Of a DNA stretch of 64,000 nt, positions 8,231 through 52,134 are shown piece by piece. Position numbers and translations under genes: made by a program. Every line of letters begins with the position of its first letter. Within the stretch, counting starts at the first letter, position 1. Origin of the DNA: an uncultured Alteromonadaceae bacterium (GTDB lineage Bacteria > Pseudomonadota > Gammaproteobacteria > Enterobacterales > Alteromonadaceae); contig CALKGI010000035.1 of NCBI GenBank assembly GCA_938085045.1, forward strand, positions 1 to 64,000, in the 5' to 3' direction. The notes under the pieces were generated by a model. That model did no database searches. It saw only the letters and a list, made by a program, of their open reading frames with translations, and had not been told where the DNA came from.

Positions 8231-9576
8231 ATTATTGGCCAGTTATTTTATACACTCTAGTAGTTGGCCTAGTGTGGATTGTTATTCCCCACCCGTTAAT
8301 CGTGGTGGCAGCTGGTATTGCCCCTATTATCGCCGTTCAAGTGGTGAAGTTTCCTTATTTGGTGTGTTTGGGCTTTATCATTTTTTCTTTTTTTCGTATT
8401 CACGAAGTATTTCCTCAACTTGGCCCACTACGCATTCCCAATTTGCTTGCCCTTGCCTCTTTGGGTGTGCTGGGCTGGCATTTGTTTATCGTTAAAGACA
8501 TACAAACCTTTTGGTCGCGGCAGTTAACTTGGTTCACCGTGTTTTTTTTGTTGGTGACCATAGGCGTTGCTTTTGCCAGTAACCGCCCCGGTGCCATTGC
8601 TTATTTTACCGGTATTTATATCAAAATTTACATCATGGCGCTGGCCATTAGCTGGTTAAGTCGTCAACCCAAAGATTTTTTACTCGCCACCCGTTTGTTT
8701 TCGCTCAGTGGCATGGTGGTGGCACTGGTGGCTTTGTCGAATAAAGCCAATGGCATAGGTTTAGTTGAAGGCACAAGGGTCACCATTGGCCGAGATTTTG
8801 GTTCGGTGTTGGGCGACCCTAATGATTTATCGCTGGTGTTGTTATTTCCGGCGAGCTTTGCCCTGAGTTTGGTGTTTTCGCCGGGCTTGAGTAAATTCGA
8901 ACGATTATTGGGGGCCTGTGTATTTGGCATCATCATCGCGGGTATCATCGCCACCCAAAGCCGTGGTGGGTTGTTGGGCATTATGTCGATTTTAGGCTTT
9001 TTTGCGTGGCACAAGGTCAAATCTAAGGCCTTGCTGGTTGGCGGCGCTGCGGTACTGCTACCAATATTGTTGGTGGCTGCCGGGATATCAGATCGCTCGT
9101 CTGGCGGGGCTGGCGAGTCGGGTATTGACGAGTCTTCGATGGGCCGTATTTACGCTTGGGAAGCCGCAATAAAAATGGCGGTAGAAAACCCCTTAACAGG
9201 CGTGGGACTCGACAATTTTGTGGTCAATTATTTTGCCTACAGTTCGCACTGGGATGGCATGAACCATGCGGTTCATAGCACTTGGTTTGGTATATTGGGC
9301 GAAACTGGCTTTTTGGGTCTTGGGGTGTTTATCACTTTACTTGTCAGTATCATCACTAATTTGCGAAAATCTCTGGCCAAAGTGATGTCAATGCAGCAAA
9401 GTGGCGCACCATTAGACCCGGTCGTGCAGCCTTATTTGTTTGCTCTAATGGCAGGGTTGGCCAGTTTTATGGTGTCGGGCACCTTTTTGACTCAAGGGTT
9501 TACTTGGCCGTTTTATGTGTTGATGTCACTGTCGGTCGCTTTAATGAAATATATCAATGAATTGAAAACCTCCTGA
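8227..9576 (+). CDS. O-antigen polymerase/ligase-like membrane protein (Wzy_C family)
   Basis: 449 residues with about 10-12 membrane helices. The Wzy/WaaL-type features are the large periplasmic loop with GRIYAWEAAIKMAVENPLTGVGLDNF, then HSTWFGILGETGFLGLGVF, and an upstream ATQSRGGLLGI block. It would polymerise or ligate the glycan units exported by the flippase with which it overlaps. Polymerase and ligase cannot be separated by eye. No chain-length regulator or initiating transferase is visible, so the locus is incomplete or split elsewhere. Confidence 0.85.
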   Translation: MNYWPVILYTLVVGLVWIVIPHPLIVVAAGIAPIIAVQVVKFPYLVCLGFIIFSFFRIHEVFPQLGPLRIPNLLALASLGVLGWHLFIVKDIQTFWSRQLTWFTVFFLLVTIGVAFASNRPGAIAYFTGIYIKIYIMALAISWLSRQPKDFLLATRLFSLSGMVVALVALSNKANGIGLVEGTRVTIGRDFGSVLGDPNDLSLVLLFPASFALSLVFSPGLSKFERLLGACVFGIIIAGIIATQSRGGLLGIMSILGFFAWHKVKSKALLVGGAAVLLPILLVAAGISDRSSGGAGESGIDESSMGRIYAWEAAIKMAVENPLTGVGLDNFVVNYFAYSSHWDGMNHAVHSTWFGILGETGFLGLGVFITLLVSIITNLRKSLAKVMSMQQSGAPLDPVVQPYLFALMAGLASFMVSGTFLTQGFTWPFYVLMSLSVALMKYINELKTS

Positions 9577-9599
9577 TACCACAACCTTCATATTCAAGT

Positions 9600-9627
9600 T
9601 TGCCAACATAGGCACGCTCACTATACT
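9600..9627 (+). promoter_or_regulatory. Likely sigma-70 promoter of the TonB receptor
   Basis: TTGCCA (9600-9605) and TATACT (9622-9627) are separated by 16 bp and sit 37 bp before the receptor ATG. This suggests that the receptor has its own promoter rather than reading through from the polysaccharide genes. Confidence 0.55.
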
Positions 9628-9663
9628 TAATCATTACAATTAACAGTCCTTCAGCGAGCCGAT

Positions 9664-11760
9664 ATGAACAAACACAAAGCCTTTGCAACGTTATTGGTAT
9701 TGCTTGCCTCAAATGCTAGTGCCGACCAGCTCAAAGGCCGCTCTGTCTACGATTTAACCCTAAAAGAATTACTTGAAACCAGAATCATCAGCCTTGCTAC
9801 TGGGTCGGAAATACCTTTGGCCAAAGCCCCTTCTGTGGCCTCTGTGATCACCGCCGACGACATCAATAAAATGGGGGCCACCACGCTCAGTGAGCTATTG
9901 TCGAGCGTACCGGGCATGTATGTGTCTCGTTCTTCTCAGCTTTACGCACCAAAATTTGTGATCAGGGGCATGTCGACGTTTTTTAACCCCCAAACGCTAA
10001 TGTTAATCAATGGCACCCCCATCTCTAGCGTGGTACGTGGTGATAGGCAGGCGGTTTGGGGCATGTTTCCTGTCAATGCCATTGAGCGAGTTGAAGTTAT
10101 TCGAGGTCCCGGTTCTGCCTTGTATGGGGCCGATGCATTTGCGGGCGTTATCAATATCATAACCAAAAAGTTTAACAACCAAGAAAAATCTCAAATGGGT
10201 ATTCGCTTAGGCGCTTTTAATACCCATGACCTTTGGGCCCAGTCGAGTTATCAGCAAGGCGACCTAAAACTATTTTTAAGTGGGCAATACAACACCACCG
10301 ATGGTCATAAGGAAGTTATTGAGCATGACGCACAAACCAATTTTGATAATGCTCAATTAAGCGAACCGGTATCACTGGCACCGGGTTCAGTCAATGTGGG
10401 TTCCCGGGGTTTTGATGTGAACCTAGACATTAATTACCATAACTTCAACTTTCAGGGCCTATTTCAAGACAGAGACAATATCGGCACTGCACACGGGGTT
10501 GGCAATGCTTTAGATCCCAACGGTAAAGCAGGCGGTGAAAGGTTGTTACTGAGCATGGATTACCAACGGACTTTTAATCCACAGTGGTTTGCCGATGTGA
10601 AATTATCTCATCATCGTAGCAGTCAATGGGTTGAAGAGTCGCTTATTTTATTCCCAAAGGGCGCTTTTTTTGGTGCCTTTAAAGATGGCTTAAGCGGTAA
10701 CCCCGGCTGGGGTGAAACCAATCAAATAATTCAAACTCGGTTGATTTATTTTGGCAATGAAATACAAAAAATTACTTTTGGTGGTGGTTACCGTAAAGAA
10801 GATCTTTACCGGGTGACTGAGACCAAAAATTTCGATGCCAACTTTGCTCCACTCAATGCGCTTACGGATGTAACAGATACTCCCGACATTTTCTTGCCCG
10901 AAACCAAACGCGACAATTATTTTGCCTATGTTCAAAACGAATACAAACTGGCAGCAAATTGGGAGCTGACTTTGGGTATTCGCTATGATGATTATTCTGA
11001 CTTTGGTGCCACGACCAATCCGCGCGCAGCACTTGTTTGGTCAACCGACGAAAACCTCACCACCAAATTTTTGTACGGTAGGGCTTTTAGAAGACCGACA
11101 GTGCTCGAAACACACGCCATCAACAATCCAGTTGCGTTGGGCAACCCAAATATAGAACCCGAAACCATCGATACCTTTGAAGTGGCTTTTAGCTATCAGG
11201 CCAACCCGCAGTTACAAATGGACATCAACTTATATCGATTCAGCGTTAAAGACTTGATTGATTTTGTGCCTGATGATGGTGGGCCAACCAATACAGCACA
11301 AAATATCGGCAAAGTGCAAGGTTTTGGCATTGAAATGGAAGTGAGCTACCAAGCAAGCGAGGCCATCAACTTACTAGTTAATTATGCTTATCAGGCGACC
11401 ACTGATAAAACCACTGACGACGATTTGGGCGGTGCACCCACTAGGCAGCTATATGCCAAGCTTAACTGGCAGCTTAGTGAGTCTATTCATTTTAATAGCC
11501 AAATTAAGTATGTAGGTAAAACACCTCGAAACACATTTGACCCTCGTGGGCCAACTGGCGCTTACACTAATGTTGCTGTGGCTTTGCGTTTTAATGCACT
11601 GTTCAGTGAATTTGACTTGCACATTAAAGCCGAAAACCTGTTTGACGAAGATATTCGTCACCCCAGCGACAGTCCCTCAAACGGCCAACTGGTGGCGATA
11701 CCCAATGATTTACCTCAAGCTGGCCGGGCGCTTTATTTTGGTTTAAGTCGATTGTTTTAA
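9664..11760 (+). CDS. TonB-dependent outer-membrane receptor
   Basis: 698 residues. Signal peptide (MNKHKAFATLLVLLASNASA), then the plug domain: PSVASVITADDINKMGATTLSELLSSVPG, FVIRGM, and ERVEVIRGPGSALYGADAFAGVINIITKK. The rest is beta-barrel sequence with repeated amphipathic strands and ends in the classic terminal aromatic (YFGLSRLF). Substrate cannot be deduced; siderophores, vitamin B12 or carbohydrates are all possible. No Fur-box-like sequence was obvious in the short upstream region. It stands alone, without TonB/ExbBD or ABC transporter neighbours. Confidence 0.92.
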   Translation: MNKHKAFATLLVLLASNASADQLKGRSVYDLTLKELLETRIISLATGSEIPLAKAPSVASVITADDINKMGATTLSELLSSVPGMYVSRSSQLYAPKFVIRGMSTFFNPQTLMLINGTPISSVVRGDRQAVWGMFPVNAIERVEVIRGPGSALYGADAFAGVINIITKKFNNQEKSQMGIRLGAFNTHDLWAQSSYQQGDLKLFLSGQYNTTDGHKEVIEHDAQTNFDNAQLSEPVSLAPGSVNVGSRGFDVNLDINYHNFNFQGLFQDRDNIGTAHGVGNALDPNGKAGGERLLLSMDYQRTFNPQWFADVKLSHHRSSQWVEESLILFPKGAFFGAFKDGLSGNPGWGETNQIIQTRLIYFGNEIQKITFGGGYRKEDLYRVTETKNFDANFAPLNALTDVTDTPDIFLPETKRDNYFAYVQNEYKLAANWELTLGIRYDDYSDFGATTNPRAALVWSTDENLTTKFLYGRAFRRPTVLETHAINNPVALGNPNIEPETIDTFEVAFSYQANPQLQMDINLYRFSVKDLIDFVPDDGGPTNTAQNIGKVQGFGIEMEVSYQASEAINLLVNYAYQATTDKTTDDDLGGAPTRQLYAKLNWQLSESIHFNSQIKYVGKTPRNTFDPRGPTGAYTNVAVALRFNALFSEFDLHIKAENLFDEDIRHPSDSPSNGQLVAIPNDLPQAGRALYFGLSRLF

Positions 11761-12917: not shown

Positions 12918-13094
12918 ACGTTTTGTCAGTGAGATCCGTAAGATGCATAACCAGTTACCAAGCAACAGCAACAAACTGTCAGCAAGTTAACACAAAGCAA
13001 AGTCAAAATGGACGCTGTATCAAGAGGAAAGGGAAGAAGTATATAAGGAAATTCAGATACAAAGGAAAAGGGTCATAAGGAAGATGTAATCGCT

Positions 13095-13378
13095 AAAAAG
13101 GAAGTCGTATAACGGAAGATGTATCAGCTAAAAAGGAAGTCGTATAACGGAAGATGTATCAGCTAAAAAGGAAGACGTATAACGGAAGATGTATCAGCTA
13201 AAAAGGAAGTCATATAACGGAAGATGTATCAGCTAAAAAAGGAAGTCGTATAACGGAAGATGTATCAGCTAAAAAAGGAAGACGTATAACGGAAGATGTA
13301 TCAGCTAAAAAAGGAAGACGTATAACGGAAGATGTATCAGCTAGAAAAGGAAGACGTTTAACGGAAGGTGTATCAGCT
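13095..13378 (+). repeat. Eight tandem 35/36-bp units, each with two GGA motifs
   Basis: Units start at 13095, 13130, 13165, 13200 (35 bp each) and 13235, 13271, 13307, 13343 (36 bp each, with one extra A in the A-run). Each has an A5-6 run, GGAAG(T/A)CGTATA, ACGGAAGATG and TATCAGCT. Degenerate half-units flank the array on both sides (from 13079, and 13379-13410). Length variation lies only in the A-run, as expected of slippage and unequal crossing-over. Confidence 0.9.
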
Positions 13379-13622
13379 GAAAAAGGAAGTTGTTAGTACG
13401 GATGGGTGTATTGAAGGAAGTAATATCGAGGGAACTGGGCATTAAGGAAGGCTTTTCGGCAGGATCATTGAACATCGGCAATTGCTGATGACAGTGATGG
13501 CCATAAGGAACGATGCTACCGGGTAAGGGCCGTAGCATAGAGTATTCAGGAAATGGAGTGTGTAGTTACCATCCGGGAGCAAACGTTACGTTCGCTTCCG
13601 GATGTGTATAAGGAATAGGGAA

Positions 13623-13852: not shown

Positions 13853-13878
13853 CTTTTTTTAACAGGCTTTTCTTTAGA

Positions 13879-13943
13879 CCAAATCCACTAACTAACTGGT
13901 CATTTTGCTGGCTTAAATCAGAGCCGTGAATTCATGTCATTGG
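13879..13943. mobile_element. Short MITE-like element, internally deleted copy
   Basis: Starts CCAAATCCACTAAC and ends GTCATTGG. Its first 35 and last about 29 bases match the two ends of the longer element at 26301-26469 with only a few differences, while the roughly 100-bp centre is missing. It is non-coding. It is flanked by TA on the right side only. Confidence 0.7.
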
Positions 13944-13995
13944 TATTAAACGTATTGTGCCTTGGGCACCAATCGCTCGCTCCCACCATTGCCGC

Positions 13996-19204: not shown

Positions 19205-20269
19205 ATGTACAAATTATTATTGCTGGGCATTTTTGCCCTTATGCTGAGCTTACCAACAGCGGCTTCAGACAAAAATCACAAAAATTATTTCTGCGAAACG
19301 GATTGCACCATGGAGTTCAACTTTTTCCGCCGCTACGCCGACAATGGCTCGTCGATGGCCCATCTAATGCTCGCCATCATGTATTACAAAGGCAAGGGAA
19401 CCGACATTAATATTGAAGCGGGTTCACGCCATTTATACCGAGCAGCCGAGAAAAAAGAGCCCGCTGCGATGTTTCAACTTGGTTACCTTTTGATGCATGG
19501 TATATTTATGGAAAAAGACCTCGAGCGGGCCGAACACTGGCTCAAAAAGGCCGAGAAGTTCAATCAAGTTGGGGCTAAAGCACAACTGGCTATACTTGAG
19601 CGCAAGCAAGGTAAGCGCAGCAAACAAATTCAAATTGGCAAAGAAGCCAAATCATTTTATACCGACTATAGCGACCAACAAGTCAACGATGCCCTAAACA
19701 CCGCCGATACCGAACTGTGTGAAGCCGTCAGCCAACGTAAAGTTTTTGAGATCATCGCCCTGTTTGATGAAAAAGAAGTTGAAAGTACCGCAGAAATGGC
19801 AGAAAAAGCGCTCAGCTGGAACATGGCCAACTGGAAACACAAAGACGATTTGGCCTATTTAGACACCTTTGGCATTGATTTCAACTGGGATTGCGTCAGG
19901 CAACAGTTTGTTGCGCAATTCAATAGCCAGTTAGACAGCTACAGTAAAATCGACGATATTGAACAATATCGTGCGCAGCACACTAACTACAACCTACTGA
20001 ACGAGCACATCAACCGCTTAGTGAATGTTAAGGTTGAAACTGAGCGCCGTGAAACCCAGCGCATTGAAGCCATGGACGAAACACAAAAAAAAGCCTTCTT
20101 CCAAAACACAAAAGACATTGAGGTTATCACCATTTCGGCCGGTTACAGTTACGAACAACTGCTGTATGTCGCCCGAAATCAAACCTGCAACCAAAATTGC
20201 GATCCACCGTGGTATTACGTGGTCGCCCCTTTGATTGTACTGCCAGGATTCTCTGCGAAGGTTCAATAG
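19205..20269 (+). CDS. Secreted Sel1-repeat protein
   Basis: 354 residues. The signal peptide (MYKLLLLGIFALMLSLPTAAS) and the GGAGTGACT ribosome binding site fix the start at 19205 instead of 19187. Sel1-like helical repeats occur around residues 40-120 (MAHLMLAIMYYKGKGTDI, AAMFQLGYLLMHGIFMEKDLERAEHWLKKA). The rest is helical and charged, with four Cys near the end (NQTCNQNCDPPWYYVV). Sel1 repeats usually mediate protein-protein contacts. It lies 105 bp upstream of the aminotransferase on the same strand; a functional link is not shown. Confidence 0.8.
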   Translation: MYKLLLLGIFALMLSLPTAASDKNHKNYFCETDCTMEFNFFRRYADNGSSMAHLMLAIMYYKGKGTDINIEAGSRHLYRAAEKKEPAAMFQLGYLLMHGIFMEKDLERAEHWLKKAEKFNQVGAKAQLAILERKQGKRSKQIQIGKEAKSFYTDYSDQQVNDALNTADTELCEAVSQRKVFEIIALFDEKEVESTAEMAEKALSWNMANWKHKDDLAYLDTFGIDFNWDCVRQQFVAQFNSQLDSYSKIDDIEQYRAQHTNYNLLNEHINRLVNVKVETERRETQRIEAMDETQKKAFFQNTKDIEVITISAGYSYEQLLYVARNQTCNQNCDPPWYYVVAPLIVLPGFSAKVQ

Positions 20270-20374
20270 CACTCGGGTTATAGAAATAAGAGATATCTCA
20301 CGCACAAGCTATCTTGCAATATATCGTAATGTCGGTAATCTTCACAGTTATCGACACTTAACAACATACAAACC

Positions 20375-21556
20375 ATGAACCCAAACGATATTAAGCGAAT
20401 ACGCGAACACACGCCCGGCTCTGTCGGGGTTATTCACTTCAATAATGCCGGTGCTGCCTTGCAACCCGCACCTGTTTTTCAGGCGGTGACCGACCACCTC
20501 AATCTCGAATACCAAATTGGCGGTTATGAAGCGGCAGCCAAAGCACTGCCCAAAACCGAAGCTTTTTATCAAAGCTTTGCCACCTTACTTAACTGTCAGC
20601 CTAACGAAATAGCCTATATCGAAAACGCCACCCGAGCTTGGGACATGCTGTTTTATTCAATTCCATTTAAAAAAGGCGACCGTATTCTCACTGCCCGTTC
20701 AGAATATATCAGCAACTATCTAGCCTACCTGCAAGTCGCCCAGCGTCACGGGGTGATAGTAGAGGCTGTGCCTGATGATGAATCGGGTCAACTCGATTTG
20801 GCCGCGCTCGATGCAATGATTGATGAAAACGTAAAACTCATTGCAATCACCCACATTCCCACCCATGGCGGTTTGGTTAACCCTGCTATTGGTGTTGGTA
20901 AAATCGCTCGTAAACACAATGTTTTATACCTGCTCGACGCTTGCCAGTCGGTTGGTCAAATACCGTTAGATGTGCAAGAAATTGGCTGCGATATGCTCAC
21001 CGGCACAGGCCGGAAATTTTTGCGCGGCCCCAGAGGCACCGGATTTTTATACGTGCGCCACGCATTAATCGAAAGCCTTGAACCGCCTTTTATTGACCTA
21101 CACGCCGCCGACTGGGTCGACCAAAACACCTACAAAATAAGACCCGACGCCCGCCGCTTTGAAAACTGGGAAAGCCATATCGCAGGCCGCGTAGGATTGG
21201 CAGCCGCAGTAGATTACGCCTTAGATATTGGACTAGAAAATATCAAGCAACGGGTTTACACATTAGCGCAAATATTCAGAACCAAACTGGCTGACATTCC
21301 GGGGGTTGAGATTCGAGATAGAGGAACCGAACAATGCGGTATTGTCACCTTCACCAAAGCTGGTGAAACCGGTTTGCAGATATCAAAACGACTGCGCGAA
21401 AAACACATCAACACCTCAGTTGCGGTGGTAGAACATGCTCGCATAGATATGACGACCCGAGGACTAAAAGACATGGTGAGAGCGTCGGTACATTATTACA
21501 ATACCGAAGTCGAAATCGAACGATTTTGTGAGGTATTAGCTGAAGGTTGTCAGTAA
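20375..21556 (+). CDS. Class V aminotransferase (cysteine desulfurase/epimerase-like)
   Basis: 393 residues, fold-type I PLP enzyme. Visible features: N-terminal HFNNAGAALQP, the PLP-ring aspartate in LLDACQSVGQIPLD (D188), and the Schiff-base lysine K214 in GTGRKFLRGPRGTGF. This subgroup is often labelled isopenicillin-N-epimerase-like; its reaction cannot be fixed by eye. There is no obvious catalytic-loop Cys of true desulfurases. The small GG-leader peptide gene follows 140 bp downstream behind its own promoter, which raises the possibility of a peptide-tailoring role, but the family is widespread and the link is speculative. Confidence 0.88.
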   Translation: MNPNDIKRIREHTPGSVGVIHFNNAGAALQPAPVFQAVTDHLNLEYQIGGYEAAAKALPKTEAFYQSFATLLNCQPNEIAYIENATRAWDMLFYSIPFKKGDRILTARSEYISNYLAYLQVAQRHGVIVEAVPDDESGQLDLAALDAMIDENVKLIAITHIPTHGGLVNPAIGVGKIARKHNVLYLLDACQSVGQIPLDVQEIGCDMLTGTGRKFLRGPRGTGFLYVRHALIESLEPPFIDLHAADWVDQNTYKIRPDARRFENWESHIAGRVGLAAAVDYALDIGLENIKQRVYTLAQIFRTKLADIPGVEIRDRGTEQCGIVTFTKAGETGLQISKRLREKHINTSVAVVEHARIDMTTRGLKDMVRASVHYYNTEVEIERFCEVLAEGCQ

Positions 21557-21617
21557 AACGGAGGGGGTTATTAACGAATAATTAACAAACTTTTTTTGCT
21601 CTTTTTTAAATCAATTG

Positions 21618-21645
21618 TTGCTTTTTTGTTAAATACCCGTATACT
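21618..21645 (+). promoter_or_regulatory. Promoter of the GG-leader peptide
   Basis: TTGCTT (21618-21623) and TATACT (21640-21645) are separated by 16 bp, 51 bp before the peptide ATG. This indicates that the small gene is transcribed independently of the aminotransferase. Confidence 0.6.
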
Positions 21646-21696
21646 CGCCTCTCAAATTTAACACACTTTGTCGCTCACGAATTTAAGGAAAAAAGT

Positions 21697-21873
21697 ATGA
21701 ACTTTAAGAAATTAAAATTAAAGAAAACCCGCATCATGGCTTTGTCTAACGATATCGAAGCATTGCCACTAGAAGCGACCACTCAAGTGGTAGGCGGTAT
21801 TATGACAACGAAGTGTCAAACCGAAGAGCAAGTTGGAACCGATCCAGAAGTGACCATGCAAGATTGCTCATAA
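21697..21873 (+). CDS. Double-glycine-leader small peptide, candidate RiPP/bacteriocin-like precursor
   Basis: 58 residues, with AAGGA 8 bp before the ATG. The N-terminal half is a typical GG-type leader: basic start (MNFKKLKLKKTRIMALS), acidic-hydrophobic middle (NDIEALPLEATTQ), then VVGG at residues 31-34. The remaining 24 residues form an acidic, Thr-rich core with two Cys (TTKCQTEEQ and MQDCS). Such leaders are usually cut after GG by a C39 peptidase-containing ABC exporter. No exporter or modifying enzyme is adjacent apart from the class V aminotransferase, so the export system would be encoded elsewhere. It has its own promoter and terminator, so it is very likely expressed. Confidence 0.75.
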   Translation: MNFKKLKLKKTRIMALSNDIEALPLEATTQVVGGIMTTKCQTEEQVGTDPEVTMQDCS

Positions 21874-21893
21874 TCACTTCTTTGTAAAACTGG

Positions 21894-21927
21894 GCTATCG
21901 ACGATGCTTTTATCGATAGCACTTTTG
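21894..21927 (+). terminator. Terminator of the GG-leader peptide gene
   Basis: GCTATCGA (21894-21901) pairs with TCGATAGC (21913-21920), followed by ACTTTTGT. It is placed 20 bp after the peptide stop. Confidence 0.65.
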
Positions 21928-21939
21928 TAATGGTGCACC

Positions 21940-22335
21940 TTACCTATTCTTTTTTCTAACCTTCTGTTGAATCGCATGATCAAGCTCATCTGGGCTGACC
22001 ACTAATCCATCTTCTTTGTCGTTTGGAAAAACCACAATCGCCAAATCATCTTCTTCCAAACCCGGTGTCCATTTACGGTGCCATTTGCTTAAGCTAATGT
22101 GTTTTGGTTTGCACTCGGCCCACTCACCTGTTGCCCACGCCTCGGCGAATTCTTTGTGTGGCCATACTGGCACACAATCTTCATCTTCAGTGTTTAACAT
22201 CACACAACCATCGTCGTCGGTGAGGATCCAAATCTCTTCTTGGGCCACCACTTCCGTCAAAAGGTATTGAAAACGTTTTTCAGCATCGTACTGATTAATC
22301 ATGGCGATTTTCGCCGCATCTAATGGGGTCGACAT
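21940..22335 (-). CDS. DUF2750-like protein
   Basis: 131 residues, soluble. The pattern WILTDDDGCVMLNTEDEDCVPVWPHKEFAEAWATGEW with a C-terminal FPNDKEDGLVVSPDELD matches the small DUF2750 family of gammaproteobacteria, which has no known function. It is convergent with the peptide gene and shares the terminator region. The ATG at 22335 is preceded by AGGAATTTATCC, a fair binding site. Confidence 0.75.
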   Translation of the reverse strand: MSTPLDAAKIAMINQYDAEKRFQYLLTEVVAQEEIWILTDDDGCVMLNTEDEDCVPVWPHKEFAEAWATGEWAECKPKHISLSKWHRKWTPGLEEDDLAIVVFPNDKEDGLVVSPDELDHAIQQKVRKKNR

Positions 22336-22434
22336 GGATAAATTCCTGTATTAAGTGGGCTTATCATTTGCCCGGCATTATAGCTGACCTTCGACTAAAT
22401 ACCATAATAAACACCCTGTGTACAAACGAACTCA

Positions 22435-24429
22435 TTAACACGAAAAGCGGCTAGCCAGCTCAGCCAGCTTGCCTGCCAACTGGGTTTGCTCGGTGCCGGC
22501 AGCGGCTATTTGGCTACCACAAGCGGCGTTTTGCTCAGACAAATCATTGATTGCCGTAATATTGCGCGCCATTTCACTCGACACCGCCACCTGCTCTTCG
22601 GTTGCACTGGCAATTTGGGTGCTCATATCGGTGATTGCTGTGGCATCATCTCCAATATTATTGAGTTTGCTTTCAAGTTTAATGGTTTGCTCAACAGCAA
22701 TATCAACTTCGTCAGAACAGCGACCAATAGAGGCCGAAACGCTCGATGCGTCTTGCTGAAATTTGCCCACCATAGATTCAATTTCGGTGGTCGATTCTTG
22801 CGTTCGCTGTGCCAAAGTTCTGACTTCATCGGCTACCACGGCAAAACCCCTGCCCTGCTCGCCTGCACGGGCCGCTTCAATGGCTGCATTTAATGCCAAC
22901 AAATTGGTTTGGTCGGCAACACTTTTAATCACCTCTACCACCGAATTGATATTGGCACTGGAGCTTTGCAGCTGTGCAATTAACGCATTAGCTTTGCCCA
23001 TCTCTTGTGACAGTTTTTCCATTTCGTTGCGCGAATGATTGATGTCTTTAATGCTTTGGTCGACCGATTGATCAACATTGCCCACCAATTCAGCGGTTTG
23101 CGAGGTATTGTTAGCCACTTCATGCACCGAGGCGGCCATTTCTTCAACCGCGGTTGCCACCAATTGAGTTTCGCTTTGCTGCTTATGCAGGTTTTCCATG
23201 TTGTTTTGTGTGGTAAGAGATGTTTGCTCTGAACTTGCCGCCAGCAAAGTACTACTTTGCTCGATGTCTTTAACTGCATTTTGAAATGCCAACAGCATAT
23301 TATTGATGGCCTGTGCCGCTCGGCCTAATTCGTCGCCACTGGTCACATCAATACGCACAGTCAAATCATTGTTTTGTTCCACAGTAGTGATGGTTCTAGA
23401 AATCGCCATCACCTGAACATCAATAATCCTTCCGATGGAACTGGCAATTAGAATGATCATCACCAACAAAGTAGAGCCAGCAATCACAGTCATCAATAAG
23501 GCCGACCATGCACTGTCAGCCAAATTTTCAGTCAGTTGACTCAAGTGCTCAGCAGTACTGTCTTCCACTTTTTTTAACTGATCGATTCGCCCTGTTGCCT
23601 GTTCAAACCATTTCGCGGCATCAACACCAAAAGCGCCCGATTCTGACTTTTCAATAGCCAACGCTCGCATCTCATTAACATAATTAACCGAAGCATCGTT
23701 CATTGCCGAACGGTAAACGCCTTGCAACGTATCGTCAGCTTCGCGTTCAAACACCCCCAAAAAAGTCTCTTGCACGGCCTTAAGCGTTAAAAACTGGGTA
23801 AAACTTTGATTGTCAAAAGCATCAACCGCAAATACATTACTCAACACCGCCCGCTCTATGCCGGCTCGTTCTTTACCTTCAAGTAAATTGTAATAGGCCA
23901 ACAATTGATTGGCCACATGACCATTGTCGGCAAGCTTGGCGATAGATTCGGTGATGCGAATGATAACTTCATGGGTGTCGGTGTAATATTTAAGCGCATC
24001 GGCTACAGGTATTGATAAACTATCAACGCTTGCGCGAGTCCCTTTCAAATTACTTAAGCGACTGGCCATAGAACTCAAACCTGACTTAATTCTGTCTTGT
24101 TCAAATTCGCCTTCATGTTCTTGTAAAAATCGATTGCGCTTTTGTAATACTTCATCTGTTTTGCGTCGTTGAGCGCTTAGCGTATCCCCAAATCTCTGCC
24201 CTTTAGTGCCAACAAAAACCGCTGTTGCGCCGCGCTCTTTTTGCATTTCGTGAAGCAATAAATTGTTATAAGTACTTAAAACCGTCAAACGGTTAATCAA
24301 ACTGGCACTTTGGCTGATTTGTAAATTATTTGATATACGTAAAAAACCCAACACAAACAAACCAATAATGGCAGGAACAATCAAGAACAGTACCTTAGTT
24401 CTAAAGTCGAGCTGTTGTAGATAGTGCAT
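22435..24429 (-). CDS. Methyl-accepting chemotaxis protein with NIT sensor domain
   Basis: 664 residues. An N-terminal membrane helix ([20 protein letters not shown]) is followed by a roughly 250-residue periplasmic helical domain with the NIT pattern ([35 protein letters not shown]). This domain type senses nitrate/nitrite in known members. A second helix ([18 protein letters not shown]) and a HAMP segment follow. The cytoplasmic coiled coil contains the conserved tip ([26 protein letters not shown]). No C-terminal CheR-tethering pentapeptide is seen. Ligand is inferred from the family only. Confidence 0.92.
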
Positions 24430-26134: not shown

Positions 26135-26500
26135 GTCTTGTTGATCCTTTTTAAGTTATTTCGCCAATAACGCCATAACAATCTCTCTAGCCAGCTTAGG
26201 GCTGAATCCTTAAAATAAAACTACCGCGTATGTCGCCAATAATAACCGCTTAAAGCAATAACTCGTGTTTGCCCCTGTAGATGACTATATTGGTATAATA
26301 CCAAATCCATTAATTAACTGGTCATTTTGCTGGCTAAAATAAGCATTAGCTTCGTTATTAATCTTGCCATTAGAGTGACTAGTGGCGGCGGTTAATGCCT
26401 TGCTACTGCTTATTTTCCCAATTGGTCCGACACATCGGCAAAATCAGACCAGTGAATTAATGTCATTGGTATAACTCCCTGTATATTAAAGGCACAGACG
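26135..26500. other. Intergenic region mostly occupied by a MITE
   Basis: No gene. The left part (26135-26293) shows nothing recognisable; the right part is the palindromic element described separately. The start of the methyltransferase-like gene lies only 30 bp beyond the element, so its promoter may be within or displaced by the insertion. Confidence 0.5.
26301..26469. mobile_element. Palindromic MITE with TA/TATAA target duplication
   Basis: The ends are imperfect inverted repeats: CCAAATCCATTAATTAAC at the left versus GTGAATTAATGTCATTGG at the right. Internal AAAATAAGCA and TGCTTATTTT also pair, so the whole 169-bp element can fold back on itself. TATAA flanks it on both sides (26294-26298 and 26470-26474), consistent with a TA-type target duplication as in IS630/mariner elements. 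It has no coding capacity. A deleted relative lies at 13879-13943. Confidence 0.8.
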
Positions 26501-27872: not shown

Positions 27873-30512
27873 TTAAGACCGCCCAAAATTCACAAAGAGG
27901 TGAAAGATATCGCGATTGCCATTGCGCGTTCTACCCGTTTTAACATTGTCTTTGCCGCTGTCGGCTTCGCTGCAATCTTTAAAATCAGCAAAATGCGTCT
28001 GATACTTTTGCCATAAGCCAGCAAAGTCTTTAGCTTTGACATACACCAATATAAAGTTTCGTTGATTGCCTGTGGTGTCGTATTTTGCTGCCAACTTTTT
28101 ATAATGACGGTCTATCACAGTGGTACTTAGACTTTTAAGAATAAAGCCCTCTATTATGCTTTCGGCAATACCTGTTTGGCTGTTTCTAATGACAAAATCT
28201 CTTTCACCACTGCCTTTTCCCGTTTCCGACTCACCGCCTCTGGCTTGGTCACTGACAATATATTTGCGATTCATCAAGGCCATTTTAAATCGGTCATTGG
28301 TTTGATTTTCGCTGTCGGTATTTATAGCGTGACGGTTTTCAGTCTCTAACAAAGAGATTTCAATCAGGTCTTGAGTTAGTTGCCTATAGTTAAAATGCGT
28401 ATCATCTTTGATTCGATAACCATCGAGCAGTGCTTCAATGTTAAAAGTATGGATTTTTTTCTTAGCATTCAAAATCGGTAGCGGGATATCCTTATGGCCC
28501 TCTTTTTCACACTCTATCAGGTAATCGTAATCCACATATCCAACCAGTTGATTTTCAAGCATCAACAGTACTTCTTCATCACAGGTCAGGGTTTGAGCAT
28601 TAACAATTCGGATGGTATGACGAATGATGATCAACAACTCTTTACCTGCACGAGAATCGGTATCAACAGCAATGGTGATGGTTTTCTTCACTTCATCTGC
28701 TATCACCACAGCGTTACAGTCTCGGTGTTGTAAAAATACACCTCTTTGCCAGTATTTGAGTGCGGCCTTGGTGATGTAGCTTTTCATTTTGACAATAAAT
28801 TGCGAAATGACGCTTTTTTTCAACAAATCATGATAGTGGAATCTAAAATTCAGGCCGGTCTGAAAGTCAGCCAACGCAAAATCTGGCTGAATTGGACTGA
28901 GTCTTGAGGGCAGTAAAATAGTGGTGTCATCAATCGAAAAAGACAATTCAAACTGATTCAGCAAGTCTTGCAACCAGTTATATTGACGAAGCTTATAATT
29001 AGTATCATAGCGAAAAATCGCCTGAAGCTGGCTGTAAACAAGCAGTGCGCTACTGTCTACCAACTCAGAACGGATGATTTTGTAAACCCCGTTGGTAACC
29101 CAATGCGGGTTTATAATTTGCATTGCACTGAGTCGACGATTATCTTTGTAGGTCACAACAGTGCCAATTTGATTGAGAATGGTCAGCAGAGTGTCCTGTA
29201 ACCGTTCGTTTATAATGCCATTGTCAACGCATAAAACTTCATACTCGTCACTTTCAATATAATCTTCCTCCCCTGTCGACATCGCCTCAAGTACGTCTTT
29301 TACCCTTGCCCAGCTTGGCGGCAACGGAAACTTGATATCTTCTAGTGCCCTAACATGTTGTCCAATACACTGAGTTAAATCATTAATGGTATGATGAATT
29401 TTACTTTTTATTTCAGCGTTTATCGCTTCGTCGTTTTCAGCGCTCAGATACAGTACATCAACAATATTAAACTCATCTTTGTAGCGGTTTAAGTCAAAAA
29501 TATAACTGGTATTCAAATCTCTTTTATTGACCACCACTATGATGGGCGAGCTGTCGCTATTGGCTTTTATTACGCTGAGCCAATGGAAAATACCCGAATC
29601 ATTATCTTCTTTTTGTGAATCAAGCACATACACATATAAACTTCTGGTACTAAGAAAAAACTGATGGGTTTGCTGGGCTATCTCTTGGCCTGCAAAATCC
29701 CAAATATTGACTTGAATGTCATTGGCAAGCGCGCGTTTTTGAATATCTATACCCAATGTGGTTTTTTGATTGGGGTTATGCCGATGACCTAAAACGCGAT
29801 TAATCAAAGAGGTTTTACCGACACGCTCATCACCAACTACCAGAACTTTGGCTTCATTGAGTGGTTTGGTCTTTTCACCTTGAACTTCCAACAGGTAAGT
29901 GACCAATTCCTGTGTGCTCAAATTGTCTTCTATGCCTTTTAGGTGCTTTGTGATCGGATTATTGAATAAATCAAGAGTGTCTGTATCTTTCAATTGAATG
30001 ATCGATTCAGGTAGGCGGGTCAAACTATTTTCACTTAGTCCTAAATAATCTAAGTTTTGCAGCTTACCAATCGTTTCTGGCAGGCACGTTAAATTATTTT
30101 CACTTAACCCTAGATAATTTAAGTTTCGCAGCTTGCCAATTGTCTCAGGCAGGCACCTCAGATTATTAGACTCCAAATCGAGTGCTGTCAGGCTCTGTAG
30201 CTTAACAATCGATTTCGGCAGACTGACCAGATTATTATCTTCCAGATTGATCACCGTCAAGTTGTGAAGTTGACCAATAGATTCGGGTAATTCAGATAGG
30301 TTATTTGATTGTAAATTCAGTTCTGTCAAAGTTGAAATGTTGCAGATAGTGTCAATATCAATATCACTACAATAGTTAATTGCAAGATGAGTCAGTTGAT
30401 TCTCATCATCTAAGAAATATGCATTTTCGCTTTCAGTGTCAAAGATATCGACTTCTTCCAAACCTTTCAAAATTGCTTGCAAAGAAAACTGCTTATTATC
30501 AATCAAAGTCAC
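27873..30512 (-). CDS. Roco protein: LRR - Ras-like GTPase - COR, with C-terminal extension
   Basis: 879 residues. Residues 60-190 are five to six 23-residue LRRs (LTELNLQSNNLSELPESIGQ type). The Roc GTPase follows with P-loop GDERVGKTS (227-235), switch II WDFAGQE and G4 VVNKRDL. The COR region (PHWVTNGVYKIIRSE, then EVLLMLENQLVGYVDYDYLIECE) comes next. The last ~118 residues contain GERDFVIRNSQTGIAESIIEGF, reminiscent of a nuclease-like or signalling core seen at the end of some bacterial NTPases. Bacterial Roco proteins are cytoplasmic dimeric GTPases of mostly unknown function. It is divergent from the ECF sigma operon and is soluble. Confidence 0.85.
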   Translation of the reverse strand: MTLIDNKQFSLQAILKGLEEVDIFDTESENAYFLDDENQLTHLAINYCSDIDIDTICNISTLTELNLQSNNLSELPESIGQLHNLTVINLEDNNLVSLPKSIVKLQSLTALDLESNNLRCLPETIGKLRNLNYLGLSENNLTCLPETIGKLQNLDYLGLSENSLTRLPESIIQLKDTDTLDLFNNPITKHLKGIEDNLSTQELVTYLLEVQGEKTKPLNEAKVLVVGDERVGKTSLINRVLGHRHNPNQKTTLGIDIQKRALANDIQVNIWDFAGQEIAQQTHQFFLSTRSLYVYVLDSQKEDNDSGIFHWLSVIKANSDSSPIIVVVNKRDLNTSYIFDLNRYKDEFNIVDVLYLSAENDEAINAEIKSKIHHTINDLTQCIGQHVRALEDIKFPLPPSWARVKDVLEAMSTGEEDYIESDEYEVLCVDNGIINERLQDTLLTILNQIGTVVTYKDNRRLSAMQIINPHWVTNGVYKIIRSELVDSSALLVYSQLQAIFRYDTNYKLRQYNWLQDLLNQFELSFSIDDTTILLPSRLSPIQPDFALADFQTGLNFRFHYHDLLKKSVISQFIVKMKSYITKAALKYWQRGVFLQHRDCNAVVIADEVKKTITIAVDTDSRAGKELLIIIRHTIRIVNAQTLTCDEEVLLMLENQLVGYVDYDYLIECEKEGHKDIPLPILNAKKKIHTFNIEALLDGYRIKDDTHFNYRQLTQDLIEISLLETENRHAINTDSENQTNDRFKMALMNRKYIVSDQARGGESETGKGSGERDFVIRNSQTGIAESIIEGFILKSLSTTVIDRHYKKLAAKYDTTGNQRNFILVYVKAKDFAGLWQKYQTHFADFKDCSEADSGKDNVKTGRTRNGNRDIFHLFVNFGRS

Positions 30513-43919: not shown

Positions 43920-46187
43920 ATGAATAAAAAAGTACCTCAACTTGTCATTGCCTCGATGCTCACACTTGGCGCATCAGCCAGTGCAGTTGCCGCAGATACC
44001 ACAAACACTACATCACCACAAACCTCTGTTGTTAACACAGCACCAGTGGGCGATGCTGGTCGCGATGATACGGTCGCCGCCAATACATATTACGCTCTTA
44101 ATGGCAGTAACAGCCACGATGCTGAGGGCGCTGAATTGACTTATCTTTGGATGCAAACTGGTGGACCTGCTGTAGATATTTTTGCACCGCAGTCGCCAAA
44201 CCCCGGTTTTGTTTCACCAAATGTCACCAGCGACCAAACTTTAACTTTCTCTTTAGACGTTTTTGACGGCAAATTGCGCGGCGAAACGGTTTTCGTCAAT
44301 ATTCTAGTTAAAGCTGACAATCAAGCACCAGTTGCTGATGCAGGACGTGATGATACAGTTGCCTCAAACACCTATTACCCACTTAATGGCAGCAACAGTC
44401 ACGACCCTGAAGGCGATGAATTAACTTACCACTGGATTCAAACAGCAGGTCCTTCGGTTGATATTTTTGCACCACAGTCGCCAAACCCAGGTTTTGTTTC
44501 TCCAAACGTCACCAGCAACGAAACATTGACTTTTGCTCTGAATGTATTTGATGGTGAGTTATACAGCGAAACGGTATTCGTTAATATTTTAGTTACCGGG
44601 CTCAATCAAGCACCTATTGCAGATGCTGGCCGCGACGACACAGTAGCACCTAACACTTATTACCCGCTCAATGGCAGCAACAGTCACGACCCTGAAGGTG
44701 AAGGTTTAACCTACCACTGGATACAAACGGCAGGTCCTTCGGTTGATATTTTTGCACCACAATCACCAAACCCGGGTTTTGTTTCACCTAACGTTACCAC
44801 CAACCAAACTTTAACATTCGCCTTGAATGTGTTTGATGGTGAACTTTACAGCGAAACCGTATTCGTCAACATCTTGGTAAAAGTCGCAAACCTAGCGCCT
44901 GTTGCCGATGCCGGTCGTGATGACACTGTCGACGAAAATGCCTATTACGCATTAAATGGCAGCAACAGTTTCGACCCTGAAGGCGCAGAACTGACTTACC
45001 ACTGGATACAAGTTGCCGGCCCTGCGGTTGATATTTTTGCACCTGAATCACCAAACCCAGGGTTTGTTGCACCTAGTGTTGATTCTACTCAAACACTGAC
45101 TTTCGCTTTGAATGTTTTTGATGGCGAACTGCGCAGCGACACTGCAATGGTCAACATTGTGATCAACAAAAACAATGAAGCACCAATCGCCGATGCGGGT
45201 GACAATAGCAACATGAAACAAGGTGGTTCAGCCACTTTAAATGGCACAGCAAGTTATGACCCAGAAGGTCTTGATATCGCCAGCTACCAGTGGACACAAG
45301 TTAGTGGGCCTTTGGCTTTGTTGATGAACACCACCAGTGCAAACCCAACCTACGTTGCACCAGTTGGCGTAAGCGGCACCATGGTATTTCAGTTGCAAGT
45401 CAGTGACGGTGTTAAAACCAGCGCGCTTTCAGCCTTGCCAGACAGCAATGTTGCTGGTGACGATTTAGTGAGTGTGACCATCACCCAAAACAATGCCCCA
45501 ATTGCTGATGCAGGACAAGATCAAAGCAAAAATGAAGGCAGTGTAGTAGTGATGGATGCTCGCGCAAGCTTCGACCCAGACCGTGACCCAATCAGCTATC
45601 AATGGGCGCAGGTTTCAGGCACGCCAGTAACATTCAACACCAACTCAATTGCCACGCCAAGCTTCACAGCACCAGCAACAACTGGTGGCGAAGCATTGGT
45701 ATTTTCAGTAACAATTACTGACAACGATTCGGTTAATCCAAAATCAACAACTGACACTGTTGTGGTTAACGTATTAGACGTTAACGCACCACCAAGCTGT
45801 GATTTGGCAACCGCATCACCAGATGCTTTATGGCCACCAAACCACAAATTGAAGCCAGTCGAAATTTATGGCGTAACCGATAATGATGCAACGTACAACA
45901 ACGTGACAATTCGTATCAACAGCGTTACTCAAGACGAAGCAATTAATGGCAAAGGCGATGGTAATACCTCTCCAGATGCGATTATTCTGCCTGGTACTAC
46001 ACTCGACAGCGCAATGATCCGCGCCGAACGTGCTCGCAAAGGTGATGGCCGTGTTTACACCATCAACTTCACTGCTGATGACGGCTTCGAGAACTGTACT
46101 GGTTCAGTCACTGTTGGCGTACCAGCCAAGCGCAAGTCTACTGCGGTTGACAGTGGTTTGACTGTTGATTCTACAACTGAAGAGTAA
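43920..46187 (+). CDS. Secreted PKD/Ig-like repeat protein
   Basis: 755 residues with a signal peptide (VIASMLTLGASASAVAADT). Four consecutive 95-residue repeats (each starting APxADAGRDDTV and containing LNGSNS, DIFAPxSPNPGFV and LxVFDGxL) are very alike, followed by two diverged PKD-like domains (ADAGDNSNMKQGGSATLNG; ADAGQDQSKNEGSVVVMDA). The C-terminal domain has the WPPNHKLKPVEI motif found at the end of several surface proteins. Likely adhesive or structural outside the cell. AAAGGAAGACACC serves as binding site; a strong terminator follows. Confidence 0.87.
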   Translation: MNKKVPQLVIASMLTLGASASAVAADTTNTTSPQTSVVNTAPVGDAGRDDTVAANTYYALNGSNSHDAEGAELTYLWMQTGGPAVDIFAPQSPNPGFVSPNVTSDQTLTFSLDVFDGKLRGETVFVNILVKADNQAPVADAGRDDTVASNTYYPLNGSNSHDPEGDELTYHWIQTAGPSVDIFAPQSPNPGFVSPNVTSNETLTFALNVFDGELYSETVFVNILVTGLNQAPIADAGRDDTVAPNTYYPLNGSNSHDPEGEGLTYHWIQTAGPSVDIFAPQSPNPGFVSPNVTTNQTLTFALNVFDGELYSETVFVNILVKVANLAPVADAGRDDTVDENAYYALNGSNSFDPEGAELTYHWIQVAGPAVDIFAPESPNPGFVAPSVDSTQTLTFALNVFDGELRSDTAMVNIVINKNNEAPIADAGDNSNMKQGGSATLNGTASYDPEGLDIASYQWTQVSGPLALLMNTTSANPTYVAPVGVSGTMVFQLQVSDGVKTSALSALPDSNVAGDDLVSVTITQNNAPIADAGQDQSKNEGSVVVMDARASFDPDRDPISYQWAQVSGTPVTFNTNSIATPSFTAPATTGGEALVFSVTITDNDSVNPKSTTDTVVVNVLDVNAPPSCDLATASPDALWPPNHKLKPVEIYGVTDNDATYNNVTIRINSVTQDEAINGKGDGNTSPDAIILPGTTLDSAMIRAERARKGDGRVYTINFTADDGFENCTGSVTVGVPAKRKSTAVDSGLTVDSTTEE

Positions 46188-46359: not shown

Positions 46360-47763
46360 ATGAAATTTCCAATTGGCATTCAAACATTCTCAGAGTTACG
46401 AGAAGAGAATTACCTGTATTTAGATAAAACCGCGTTGGTTCATAAGCTCATCACCTGCGGTAAAAACTATTTTCTATCCCGCCCACGCCGCTTTGGTAAA
46501 TCCTTACTGATCTCAACCCTTGAAGCCGTTTTTCTTGGTCGTAAGGCATTATTTGAAGGTTTAGACATAAGCCAAACCGATTACGATTTTACTGTTTACC
46601 CAGTAATAAAAATGGAATTTACTCGGGTGCTTGTTAGGCAGGTCGACGATTTAGAAAATTACATAATCAACACCGCCAATCGTTACGCCAAAGCCCACGA
46701 TATTGAATTGGAAGTGACCAGTTATGAGCAAAGGTTTGCTGAGCTGGTAATTAAACTCAATGAAAAATACCAACAAAAAGTGGTGTTACTGATTGATGAA
46801 TATGACAAACCAATTTTGTCTCATCTTAACAAGCCGACACTACCCGACATCAAAGAAGCCATTAATGGGTTTTATTCATCCGTAAAATCGTTAGATGAGT
46901 ATTTGAGGTTTGTTTTTATTGCAGGCGTCTCTAAATTTGCCAAAGTGTCTGTGTTTAGTGGTATGAACAATCTAACTGACATTTCGATGTTGCAGACCTA
47001 CGCCACACTTTGCGGTATTACCGAATCTGAACTGCAAAATGGCTTTAGCGCACAAATTGAACCTTTGGCTCAGCATCTAGAACAATCTAAGACCCAAACG
47101 CTCGCAGACATCAAACGTTGGTACAATGGCTATTATTTTCATCATAGCGCCCCCGGGGTTTATAACCCTTATTCAGTATTAAGCCTGTTTCAACATCAAG
47201 AATTCAATAACTACTGGTTTGAGACTGGCACACCGACATTTTTACTAGATTTGTTAAAAGAAAACCAATACGACTTCACAAACTTTGAACAATGCGAACT
47301 CGGTGCCAGCGCCTTTGCAGCGTCAGAGCCCGAAAACATTAATTTGCCTTCGTTATTATTCCAAACAGGTTATTTGACCATCAAGGGTTTCGACAAACCT
47401 TTGTATCAACTCGACTTTCCAAATTACGAAGTTAAAAAGTCATTCTATGAATCAGTCGCCACAGAATACTCGCAAATAAACGCAGGCATGGGCGAAACTT
47501 ATACCACCAGACTAACTCAACATTTGAATGCCAAACGACTAGATGCTTTTTTTGAAACTCTGGCAGAGTTCTTCGCAAATATTCCCAACAACATCACCTT
47601 AAAAAATGAAAAATACTACCAATCTATTTTCTACTCGGTGATCACATTACTGGGTTTTGACATAGAGGCCGAAGTCAGCACCAATCAAGACCGTATCGAC
47701 TGTGTTTTGCAAACTGGCGACACCATTTACATCATCGAATTTAAGTTGAATGGCAGTAAAGAA
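46360..47763 (+). pseudogene. AAA-ATPase-like/DUF1703 gene, 5' part, interrupted by IS66
   Basis: 468 codons upstream of the insertion. MKFPIGIQTFSELREENYLYLDKT is the family N-terminus, so the start at 46360 is preferred over 46300. P-loop-like SRPRRFGKSLLIS and Walker B KVVLLIDEYDKPI are followed by a C-terminal nuclease-like core (DRIDCVLQTGDTIYIIEFKLNGS, i.e. D and ExK). The IS66 copy begins at 47764 and the frame runs on into it for 27 codons of junk (ending QCCQAHE). The remaining 54 residues lie at 50136-50300. Removing the element plus one target duplication gives a perfect 522-residue protein. Confidence 0.88.
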
Positions 47764-47785
47764 GTAAGCGTCCGATTTCGCACAC

Positions 47786-49300: not shown

Positions 49301-49386
49301 ACAGTAATTATACCTCAATACGATGGTAAGTTACTGATTATACTTAGACTAAATGGTCAACGTTGAGGCGTTCTTATGATCGTGAG

Positions 49387-49737
49387 TTATAAGGCTACCG
49401 AGTCATAAAAAAGCGGCTCATGGCCGACGACAGAAAAACCATCGAGCAACCAATTAAACTGCTGTGATGATAAAGTTAAGGTTTCATTCTTGACTTGGTT
49501 TGGCCATTTGAAGCGGCTTTTGTCCAATCGTTTATACCACATGGCAAAGCCCGTTTTATCCCAGTAAACGATTTTGATTTTATCTTTTTTTTTATTGCAA
49601 AACACAAACAAAGCATCCTCGAACGGTGACATATTCATTTGCATTTCGACGATACAAACAAGGCCATTGATCGATTTTCGAAAGTCGACAAAGTCACGGT
49701 GCAAATACACGTCAGGCACTTCATTAAACATTTTCAT
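49387..49737 (-). CDS. tnpB: IS66 accessory protein TnpB
   Basis: 116 residues. It has the IS66 Orf2 signature: YLHRDFVDFRKSINGLVCIV, ALFVFCNKKKDKIKIVYWDKTGFAMWYKRLDKSRF. Start at 49737 overlaps the tnpA stop in ATGA, giving coupling. Required with TnpA and TnpC for transposition of IS66 elements. Its exact biochemical role is unknown. Confidence 0.92.
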   Translation of the reverse strand: MKMFNEVPDVYLHRDFVDFRKSINGLVCIVEMQMNMSPFEDALFVFCNKKKDKIKIVYWDKTGFAMWYKRLDKSRFKWPNQVKNETLTLSSQQFNWLLDGFSVVGHEPLFYDSVAL

Positions 49738-50045
49738 GCCGACCACTCTCGCATGAATTGACCAAGCCATTGTGGTGAAGTGTCTGTGGGTAGCTGAATT
49801 GTTGCTTGATGGGTTTTAATATAAATTGCATCAAGAGCGGGTGCTAGACTGGCGTTGGCCACCTTAACAAAATCAGATGAGTGTGTAGTGACAGCAGGTG
49901 AATTTTGTTTTTTCAATGCGCTGCGCCGAGCATAAAATGTCTGAGGTTTAATTTGATGCTCGCGACAGTATTGTGAAATGCTCAGGCCGCTTGTTTGCTG
50001 CTCATTGATCGCTAATTGCCATTGCTCGCGCGTTCGTCGGCTCAT
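49734..50045 (-). CDS. tnpA: IS66 accessory protein TnpA
   Basis: 103 residues. A helix-turn-helix is visible in SRRTREQWQLAINEQQTSGLSISQYCREHQIKPQTFYARRSALKK, as in IS66 Orf1. It starts near the right inverted repeat (82 bp inside) and shares ATGA with tnpB. It probably binds element ends or regulates transposition. Confidence 0.9.
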   Translation of the reverse strand: MSRRTREQWQLAINEQQTSGLSISQYCREHQIKPQTFYARRSALKKQNSPAVTTHSSDFVKVANASLAPALDAIYIKTHQATIQLPTDTSPQWLGQFMREWSA

Positions 50046-50135
50046 ATTATTCTCCCAATATTAAAGTGAGCGTAAAGCTTAACAGCGGGATTTTATTGTG
50101 GGAAGGTGGGCTCTATTGGACGCTTACGTAAAGAA

Positions 50136-52092: not shown

Positions 52093-52134
52093 AGTGTCCC
52101 CTTGCTTGCAACCGACTGTTTTTTGTATAACCAC

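What the first reader, a model, noticed from the sequence alone, without database searches (positions are those of the whole stretch)
21697..21873. Double-glycine-leader peptide too short for standard gene calling
A 58-residue gene with its own promoter, ribosome binding site and terminator encodes a textbook GG leader and a 24-residue acidic core with two Cys. It may be a RiPP, bacteriocin-like or signalling peptide. No transporter is adjacent, so it would rely on an exporter elsewhere.
Basis: partly seen in the sequence, partly recalled or inferred. Interest (0 to 1): 0.7.

Follow-up and report, generated by a model that had tools for sequence, protein, structure and literature searches.

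The report
Orphan lanthipeptide precursor, modified in trans
This small gene very probably makes a ring-containing secreted peptide whose modifying enzymes lie elsewhere in the genome, and it belongs to a family of such peptides scattered through the genomes of related marine bacteria, much as prochlorosins are in cyanobacteria but with a different enzyme class.

Summary
The ORF is real: 58 codons, a 34-residue leader ending in GG and a 24-residue acidic core with two Cys. A syntenic orthologue in a second genome of the genus keeps the leader, both Cys and the Thr before them. One paralogue shares the leader; it lies, on another contig, beside the genome's only detected LanB and LanC and a C39-ABC exporter. 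The window peptide is best read as an unlinked class I lanthipeptide precursor, modified in trans. In 395 genomes of the family, 38 carry the leader; 35 of those 38 have LanB, against 1 of 40 hand-picked leader-negative genomes. In three near-complete Thalassomonas-group genomes with one LanB each, 38 of 45 leader copies lie over 100 kb from it or on another contig. Class I lanthipeptides from this group are known. Genome-wide dispersal is known for class II prochlorosins; I found no report of a class I counterpart in the library searched. Modification, export and activity are inferred, not shown.

The parts
21697..21873 (+). Precursor gene, 58 codons: orphan class I lanthipeptide-type precursor
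   Evidence: translation; paralogue E 2.1e-9; syntenic orthologue; mainly synonymous change in the leader
21697..21798 (+). Leader, 34 residues, ending in GG; V at -4, T at -7, L at -12, I at -15
   Evidence: leader family
21799..21870 (+). Core, 24 residues IMTTKCQTEEQVGTDPEVTMQDCS; candidate rings Thr37/Thr38 to Cys40 and Thr53 to Cys57 (inferred)
   Evidence: the same Thr and Cys positions are conserved in the orthologue
21685..21689 (+). Ribosome binding site AAGGA
   Evidence: Sequence; conserved in the orthologue
21615..21645 (+). Conserved upstream block with putative -10 TATACT at 21640-21645; promoter inferred
   Evidence: Alignment; the consensus scan found no promoter
21894..21920 (+). 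Conserved hairpin after the stop codon, possible weak terminator
   Evidence: Alignment and fold; the scan found no terminator

Best explanation
The gene encodes an unlinked (orphan) precursor of a class I lanthipeptide. The Lys-rich LSxD...LP...T..V.GG leader is proposed to be recognised by the single detected LanB dehydratase, encoded on another contig (C168:43986-47153), which would dehydrate Thr/Ser of the core. The LanC cyclase (C168:51909-53222) would close thioether rings onto the two Cys (most simply Thr37/38-Cys40 and Thr53-Cys57), and the C39-peptidase ABC exporter with its HlyD adaptor (C168:47157-50515) would cut after GG and export the core. Shown: the gene, its conservation, the shared leader, the presence of one intact-looking LanB, LanC and C39 exporter, and the tie between this leader family and LanB across genomes. 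Inferred: in-trans modification, ring pattern, export and any biological activity.
For: Only one paralogue of the leader was found in the genome; 29 of 58 residues of P0001 are identical in it, 22 of the 34 in the leader. It lies just upstream of the LanC reading frame on the same strand, with LanB, HlyD and the C39 exporter within 10 kb. LanB matches NisB structures and a thiopeptide-type relative along most of its length; LanC matches NisC and keeps the WCYG and CHG motifs; the exporter matches a solved ABC-type bacteriocin transporter (4ry2) and keeps the ECG/DCG cysteine motif of the peptidase. The leader family and LanB co-occur: 35 of 38 leader-positive genomes against 1 of 40 hand-picked leader-negative genomes (Fisher p 2e-17, which ignores relatedness); the 3 exceptions are among the weakest leader hits (E 0.004-0.006). 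Cores of 112 distinct relatives hold 9.3% Cys against 0.1% in leaders; in 63 less redundant Cys-containing cores 213 of 227 Cys have Ser/Thr 2-7 residues upstream, against 72% in shuffles with Cys fixed, 0 of 1000 reaching the observed value. The window leader is closer to leaders of its own genus (65-68% to the LanB-adjacent ones, 91% to the orthologue) than to any of 107 others (best 55%). NCBIfam's class I lanthipeptide leader model NF038158 matches 4 of 11 family members weakly (best E 0.0013).
Against: P0001 itself matches no NCBIfam or Pfam model and neither does P0002 in NCBIfam. Two of the 11 members match TIGR04149, an rSAM-associated leader family, one better (3.9e-5) than any matches the lanthipeptide model. 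The genome is 81% complete, so 'only' LanB means only one detected. A second C39 exporter with a HlyD adaptor lies on C125 without a LanB, so export by that machine is possible. Some family members have no Cys (20 of 112 cores), so not every leader of this type leads to rings. Nothing here shows expression or modification.
Confidence: 0.85

Rival explanations
1. An unmodified double-glycine peptide (microcin-like or signalling) that only shares a leader with the lanthipeptide and is exported by one of the C39 exporters, perhaps the one on C125, with the two Cys forming a disulfide.
For: A second C39 exporter with HlyD adaptor exists without LanB; a disulfide between two Cys is chemically simple; the gene is not in the LanB cluster.
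Against: Leader-positive genomes nearly always have LanB while the tested leader-negative ones do not; Thr positions before both Cys are conserved in the orthologue; Ser/Thr are enriched upstream of Cys across the family; a regex scan found no convincing GG-leader peptide near the C125 exporter.
Confidence: 0.1
2. A decaying relic of a precursor duplication, no longer made or modified.
For: No consensus promoter or terminator was found by the scan; one Thalassomonas-group copy is interrupted by a stop codon, so decay does happen in the family.
Against: Open frame, ribosome site, upstream block and both Cys are kept in the orthologue while synonymous sites are near saturation.
Confidence: 0.04
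3. A chance ORF with no function.
For: It is short, and the list of ORFs holds many spurious ones.
Against: Paralogue at E 2.1e-9, syntenic orthologue with a synonymous change pattern, family profile matches in 38 of 395 genomes.
Confidence: 0.01

Closest known systems
Thalassomonasins A and B (Thalassomonas actiniarum), class I lanthipeptides
   Same: Related marine gammaproteobacteria; class I enzymes; leader of 29 residues and core of 25-26 with 2-3 Cys, as told in review PMC11433236 (passages)
   Different: Their two precursor genes are in the enzyme cluster; the window gene is on a contig without LanB, LanC or C39 exporter. The original paper was not read; sequences were not compared.
Viridisins VdsA1-VdsA3 (Thalassomonas viridans)
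   Same: Class I lanthipeptides with several precursors, about 25-residue cores and 2-4 Cys (review passages)
   Different: Reported as clustered; the original paper is not held.
Pseudorosins A-C / PsfB (Pseudoalteromonas flavipulchra S16) and PciA (P. citrea)
   Same: Class I lanthipeptides from a genus in which this leader family is abundant (passages; titles; search hits)
   Different: Characterised clusters; nothing on unlinked precursors was in the passages seen.
Prochlorosins / synechococsins (ProcA/ProcM, SyncA/SyncM)
   Same: One modifying enzyme and many precursors with conserved leader, GG site and variable cores that can be scattered over the genome (PMC10783134 passages)
   Different: Class II: one bifunctional LanM; here separate LanB and LanC and a short Lys-rich leader.
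NCBIfam NF038158 lant_leader_L1b (class I lanthipeptide leader)
   Same: Matches 4 of 11 members of the family (best E 0.0013)
   Different: Does not match the window peptide.

Membership tests
Class I lanthipeptide precursor (LanA) | Leader-core precursor with Cys and Ser/Thr in the core | tested here: met
   24-residue core with 2 Cys and 6 Ser/Thr; pattern conserved in the orthologue
Class I lanthipeptide precursor (LanA) | A LanB dehydratase and a separate LanC cyclase in the genome | tested here: met
   One PF04738+PF14028 protein and one PF05147 protein on C168; alignments
Class I lanthipeptide precursor (LanA) | Precursor encoded beside lanB/lanC (usual, not required by the chemistry) | tested here: not met
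   The window gene is on C35, LanB and LanC on C168; its paralogue P0002 meets it
Class I lanthipeptide precursor (LanA) | Leader recognised by LanB | tested here: inconclusive
   Shared leader with the LanB-adjacent paralogue and co-occurrence with LanB; binding not tested
Class I lanthipeptide precursor (LanA) | Lanthionine or methyllanthionine in the product | not testable with these tools
   Needs mass spectrometry
NCBIfam NF038158 leader family | Match to the curated model | tested here: not met
   No match for P0001; 4 of 11 relatives match weakly
Double-glycine peptide processed by a C39 exporter | GG site with hydrophobic residues at -4, -7, -12 (-15) | tested here: inconclusive
   V -4, T -7, L -12, I -15; rule seen in PMC10885120 passages; three of four fit
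Double-glycine peptide processed by a C39 exporter | A C39 exporter in the genome | tested here: met
   Four PF03412 hits over cut-off, two in proteins of about 700 aa next to HlyD-type adaptors
Prochlorosin-like dispersed substrate system | Many unlinked precursors and one modifying system | tested here: inconclusive
   Copy number and distance met in Thalassomonas-group genomes; in the window's genome only one unlinked and one linked precursor were found; modification not tested
Prochlorosin family proper | Class II LanM enzyme and Nif11-type leader | tested here: not met
   The enzymes beside P0002 are LanB and LanC; the 34-residue leader has no Pfam match

The most novel reading that the evidence does not exclude
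In Thalassomonas, Pseudoalteromonas and, on a small scale, Algicola, one class I LanB/LanC/C39 machine serves a large set of precursor genes scattered over the genome, each with a conserved leader and a fast-changing core: a class I counterpart of the prochlorosins, that is, a natural combinatorial library of lanthipeptides, of which the window gene is one unlinked member.
Probability: 0.68. Interest if true: 0.8.

Novelty: new variant of a known kind. Interest (0 to 1): 0.66.

Why it matters
Cluster-based genome mining looks for precursors near the enzymes and would miss genes like this one. If the scattered copies are modified, marine gammaproteobacteria make many more lanthipeptides than their single clusters suggest, a LanB/LanC pair must be very tolerant of its substrates, as ProcM is, and such a pair would be a useful tool for making cyclic peptide libraries with class I chemistry. 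It also gives a second, independent lineage in which to ask what prochlorosin-like peptide sets are for.

Tried and rejected
Family libraries: P0001 has no NCBIfam or Pfam match at E up to 10. The consensus scan for promoters and terminators found none. A DNA search of plasmids with 20000-22500 returned matches to the neighbouring aminotransferase and DUF2750 stretches only, none on the peptide, in the 20 of 31 rows shown. A GG-peptide regex over the C125 exporter region found no convincing partner peptide. My first two regex scripts for precursors were faulty and missed known members; they were corrected. The profile search scored at most 16 candidates a genome, so copy numbers are lower bounds; the strict DNA pattern misses variants and also hits what look like unrelated genes in some genomes (for example the rows of genus g15), so its 44 pattern-positive genomes are not 44 carriers; the reversed-pattern control gave 6 hits in the 395 genomes. 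The first shuffle control, moved Cys as well and is not used; the Cys-fixed one is. In one search one of the six matching genomes (G208) was a chance hit inside a 379-codon frame and was dropped from later alignments. Structure prediction was not used: the peptide is short and the enzymes are recognisable by sequence. The claim of no report in print rests on the paper search only; the viridisin, thalassomonasin and pseudorosin papers themselves were not read.

Full report
What is there. Window 21697-21873 (+) encodes MNFKKLKLKKTRIMALSNDIEALPLEATTQVVGG-IMTTKCQTEEQVGTDPEVTMQDCS. It lies between a class V aminotransferase gene (20375-21556) and a DUF2750 gene on the other strand (21940-22335). 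Neither neighbour is a recognised RiPP gene. A ribosome binding site is visible.

Is it real? The genome (G000, 5.89 Mb, 317 contigs, 81% complete) has one other place with this leader, C168:53442-53263 (-), at E 2.1e-9; its product P0002 is MEFKKLKLKKAKVMELSADIESLPMEDTAKVAGG-IPTYLTCIADCHGITGQICYPPQES. The only other genome of the same genus in the draws, G409, carries a syntenic copy between the same two neighbours, with the core AITTLCNKTEGNVGTDPDLTMVGCS. In 34 leader codons 3 differences are non-synonymous and 13 synonymous; in 24 core codons 10 and 5. Both Cys, the Thr pair before the first and the Thr four before the second are kept. So the leader is under strong constraint and the core changes faster but keeps the candidate ring-forming residues. 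G409 has the same size, contig numbers and coordinates as G754, which holds locus L099, titled MAG: Algicola sp. isolate DT_2; the window's genus is therefore taken to be Algicola, by inference.

Where the enzymes are. The genome has one detected LanB (PF04738; PF14028 too), one detected LanC-like protein and four C39 domains. LanB (C168:43986-47153), a HlyD-type adaptor (47157-48416), a C39-ABC exporter (48413-50515), LanC (51909-53222, -) and P0002 lie within 10 kb. LanB aligns with NisB structures, LanC with NisC including WCYG and CHG (their role as zinc ligands is recalled), and the exporter with the solved bacteriocin transporter 4ry2. The window contig C35 (124,875 bases) has none of these. 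From the gene's place on C35 and LanB's place on C168 the two are at least about 64 kb apart, even if the contigs were adjacent.

The leader family. A profile of 11 members found matches in 38 of 395 genomes of the taxonomic family, 14 of 52 genera. PF04738 was then sought in those 38 and in 40 leader-negative genomes that I picked from the same genera (40 of 357 negatives): 35 of 38 against 1 of 40 (Fisher p 2e-17, relatedness ignored). The three leader-positive genomes without LanB (G425, G499, G703) are marginal hits (E 0.004 to 0.006). Relatives of the LanB in named genomes include Pseudoalteromonas, Thalassomonas, Rheinheimera, Shewanella, Vibrio, Photobacterium and Colwellia, and also Bacteroidota and others (75 loci). 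Not all LanB carriers have this leader: the strict pattern below was found in 19 of 29 of the named genomes tried (29 of the 30 handles given; one was not held), and not in the Vibrio, Photobacterium, Colwellia or the non-gammaproteobacterial ones.

Dispersal. All 11 have LanB; 10 have one PF04738 match and G657 has a second, weak partial one. A strict DNA pattern for LSxDxxx[L]xxxxTxxVxGG counted 20, 21 and 16 copies in G434, G459 and G485 with none in their reversed controls, 21 in Thalassomonas sp. RHCl1 (G756; same counts and coordinates as G459, so the same genome) and 15 in P. luteoviolacea H33-S. In the three near-complete genomes G400, G434 and G485 with one LanB each, 7 of 45 copies lie within 10 kb of LanB and the other 38 are more than 100 kb away or on another contig. 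One of the 7, in G485, is interrupted by a stop codon. In the window's own genome the family is small: one linked and one unlinked copy.

Cores. Across 112 distinct precursors in held loci, Cys makes up 9.3% of cores and 0.1% of leaders; 92 of 112 cores have Cys. These 112 include LanB-linked and unlinked copies together. In 63 less redundant cores 213 of 227 Cys have Ser or Thr 2 to 7 residues upstream (72% expected with Cys fixed and the rest shuffled, 0 of 1000 shuffles as high); downstream the excess is slight (149 of 227, expected 60%, 16 of 1000). That asymmetry fits thioether rings with the dehydrated residue on the N-terminal side. Twenty cores have no Cys, which the lanthipeptide reading does not explain unless they are only dehydrated; prochlorosin sets also hold peptides without Cys (PMC11251773 passage).

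How it most likely works. The leader is bound by LanB; Thr/Ser are dehydrated; LanC adds Cys; the C39 exporter cuts after GG and exports the core. The leader fits the C39 rule at -4, -12 and -15 but not at -7, where this family tends to have Thr (rule from PMC10885120 passages). All enzymatic steps are inferred from family knowledge.

Compared with what is known. Class I lanthipeptides from this group of bacteria exist: thalassomonasins and viridisins (review passages in PMC11433236), PciA of P. citrea (PMC9993889 passages) and pseudorosins A-C of P. flavipulchra (PMC12819058 passage). Scattered precursors with one promiscuous enzyme are known for class II prochlorosins (PMC10783134 passages), and a 2025 review of enzyme promiscuity describes many-precursor systems for class II in the passages I saw (PMC12328550). 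I found no report of scattered class I precursors in ten paper searches; the library lacks most subscription journals. So the window peptide is an unlinked member of a known kind, and the dispersed class I set looks like a new variant of that kind.

Noticed in passing
window 13053-13390: Tandem array with a unit of about 36 bp, also present at the syntenic place in G409 (L097 1-260)
   Followed up: partly
window 26296-26474; L009 7511-7674 and 18429-18518 (C168): A dispersed repeat of up to about 180 bp with copies some 300 bp upstream of lanB and about 1 kb upstream of the P0002 gene; shorter similarity at window 13878-13950
   Followed up: partly
window 27873-30512 (-): Large protein with leucine-rich repeats followed by a GTPase-like stretch, resembling Roc-COR proteins (by eye and recalled, not searched)
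   Followed up: no
window 43920-46187 (+): Protein with long internal repeats (78% identical DNA over 838 bp), PKD-like by eye
   Followed up: no
L011 (C125) 8363-11760: A second C39 exporter with HlyD-type adaptor and no LanB on that contig; no convincing partner peptide found
   Followed up: partly
L105, L137, L143 and L109, L117, L139, L153 (Pseudoalteromonas): Peptides with a similar leader but repeated NTDTVTQ-type or SSDTSVT-type cores that lack or are poor in Cys
   Followed up: no
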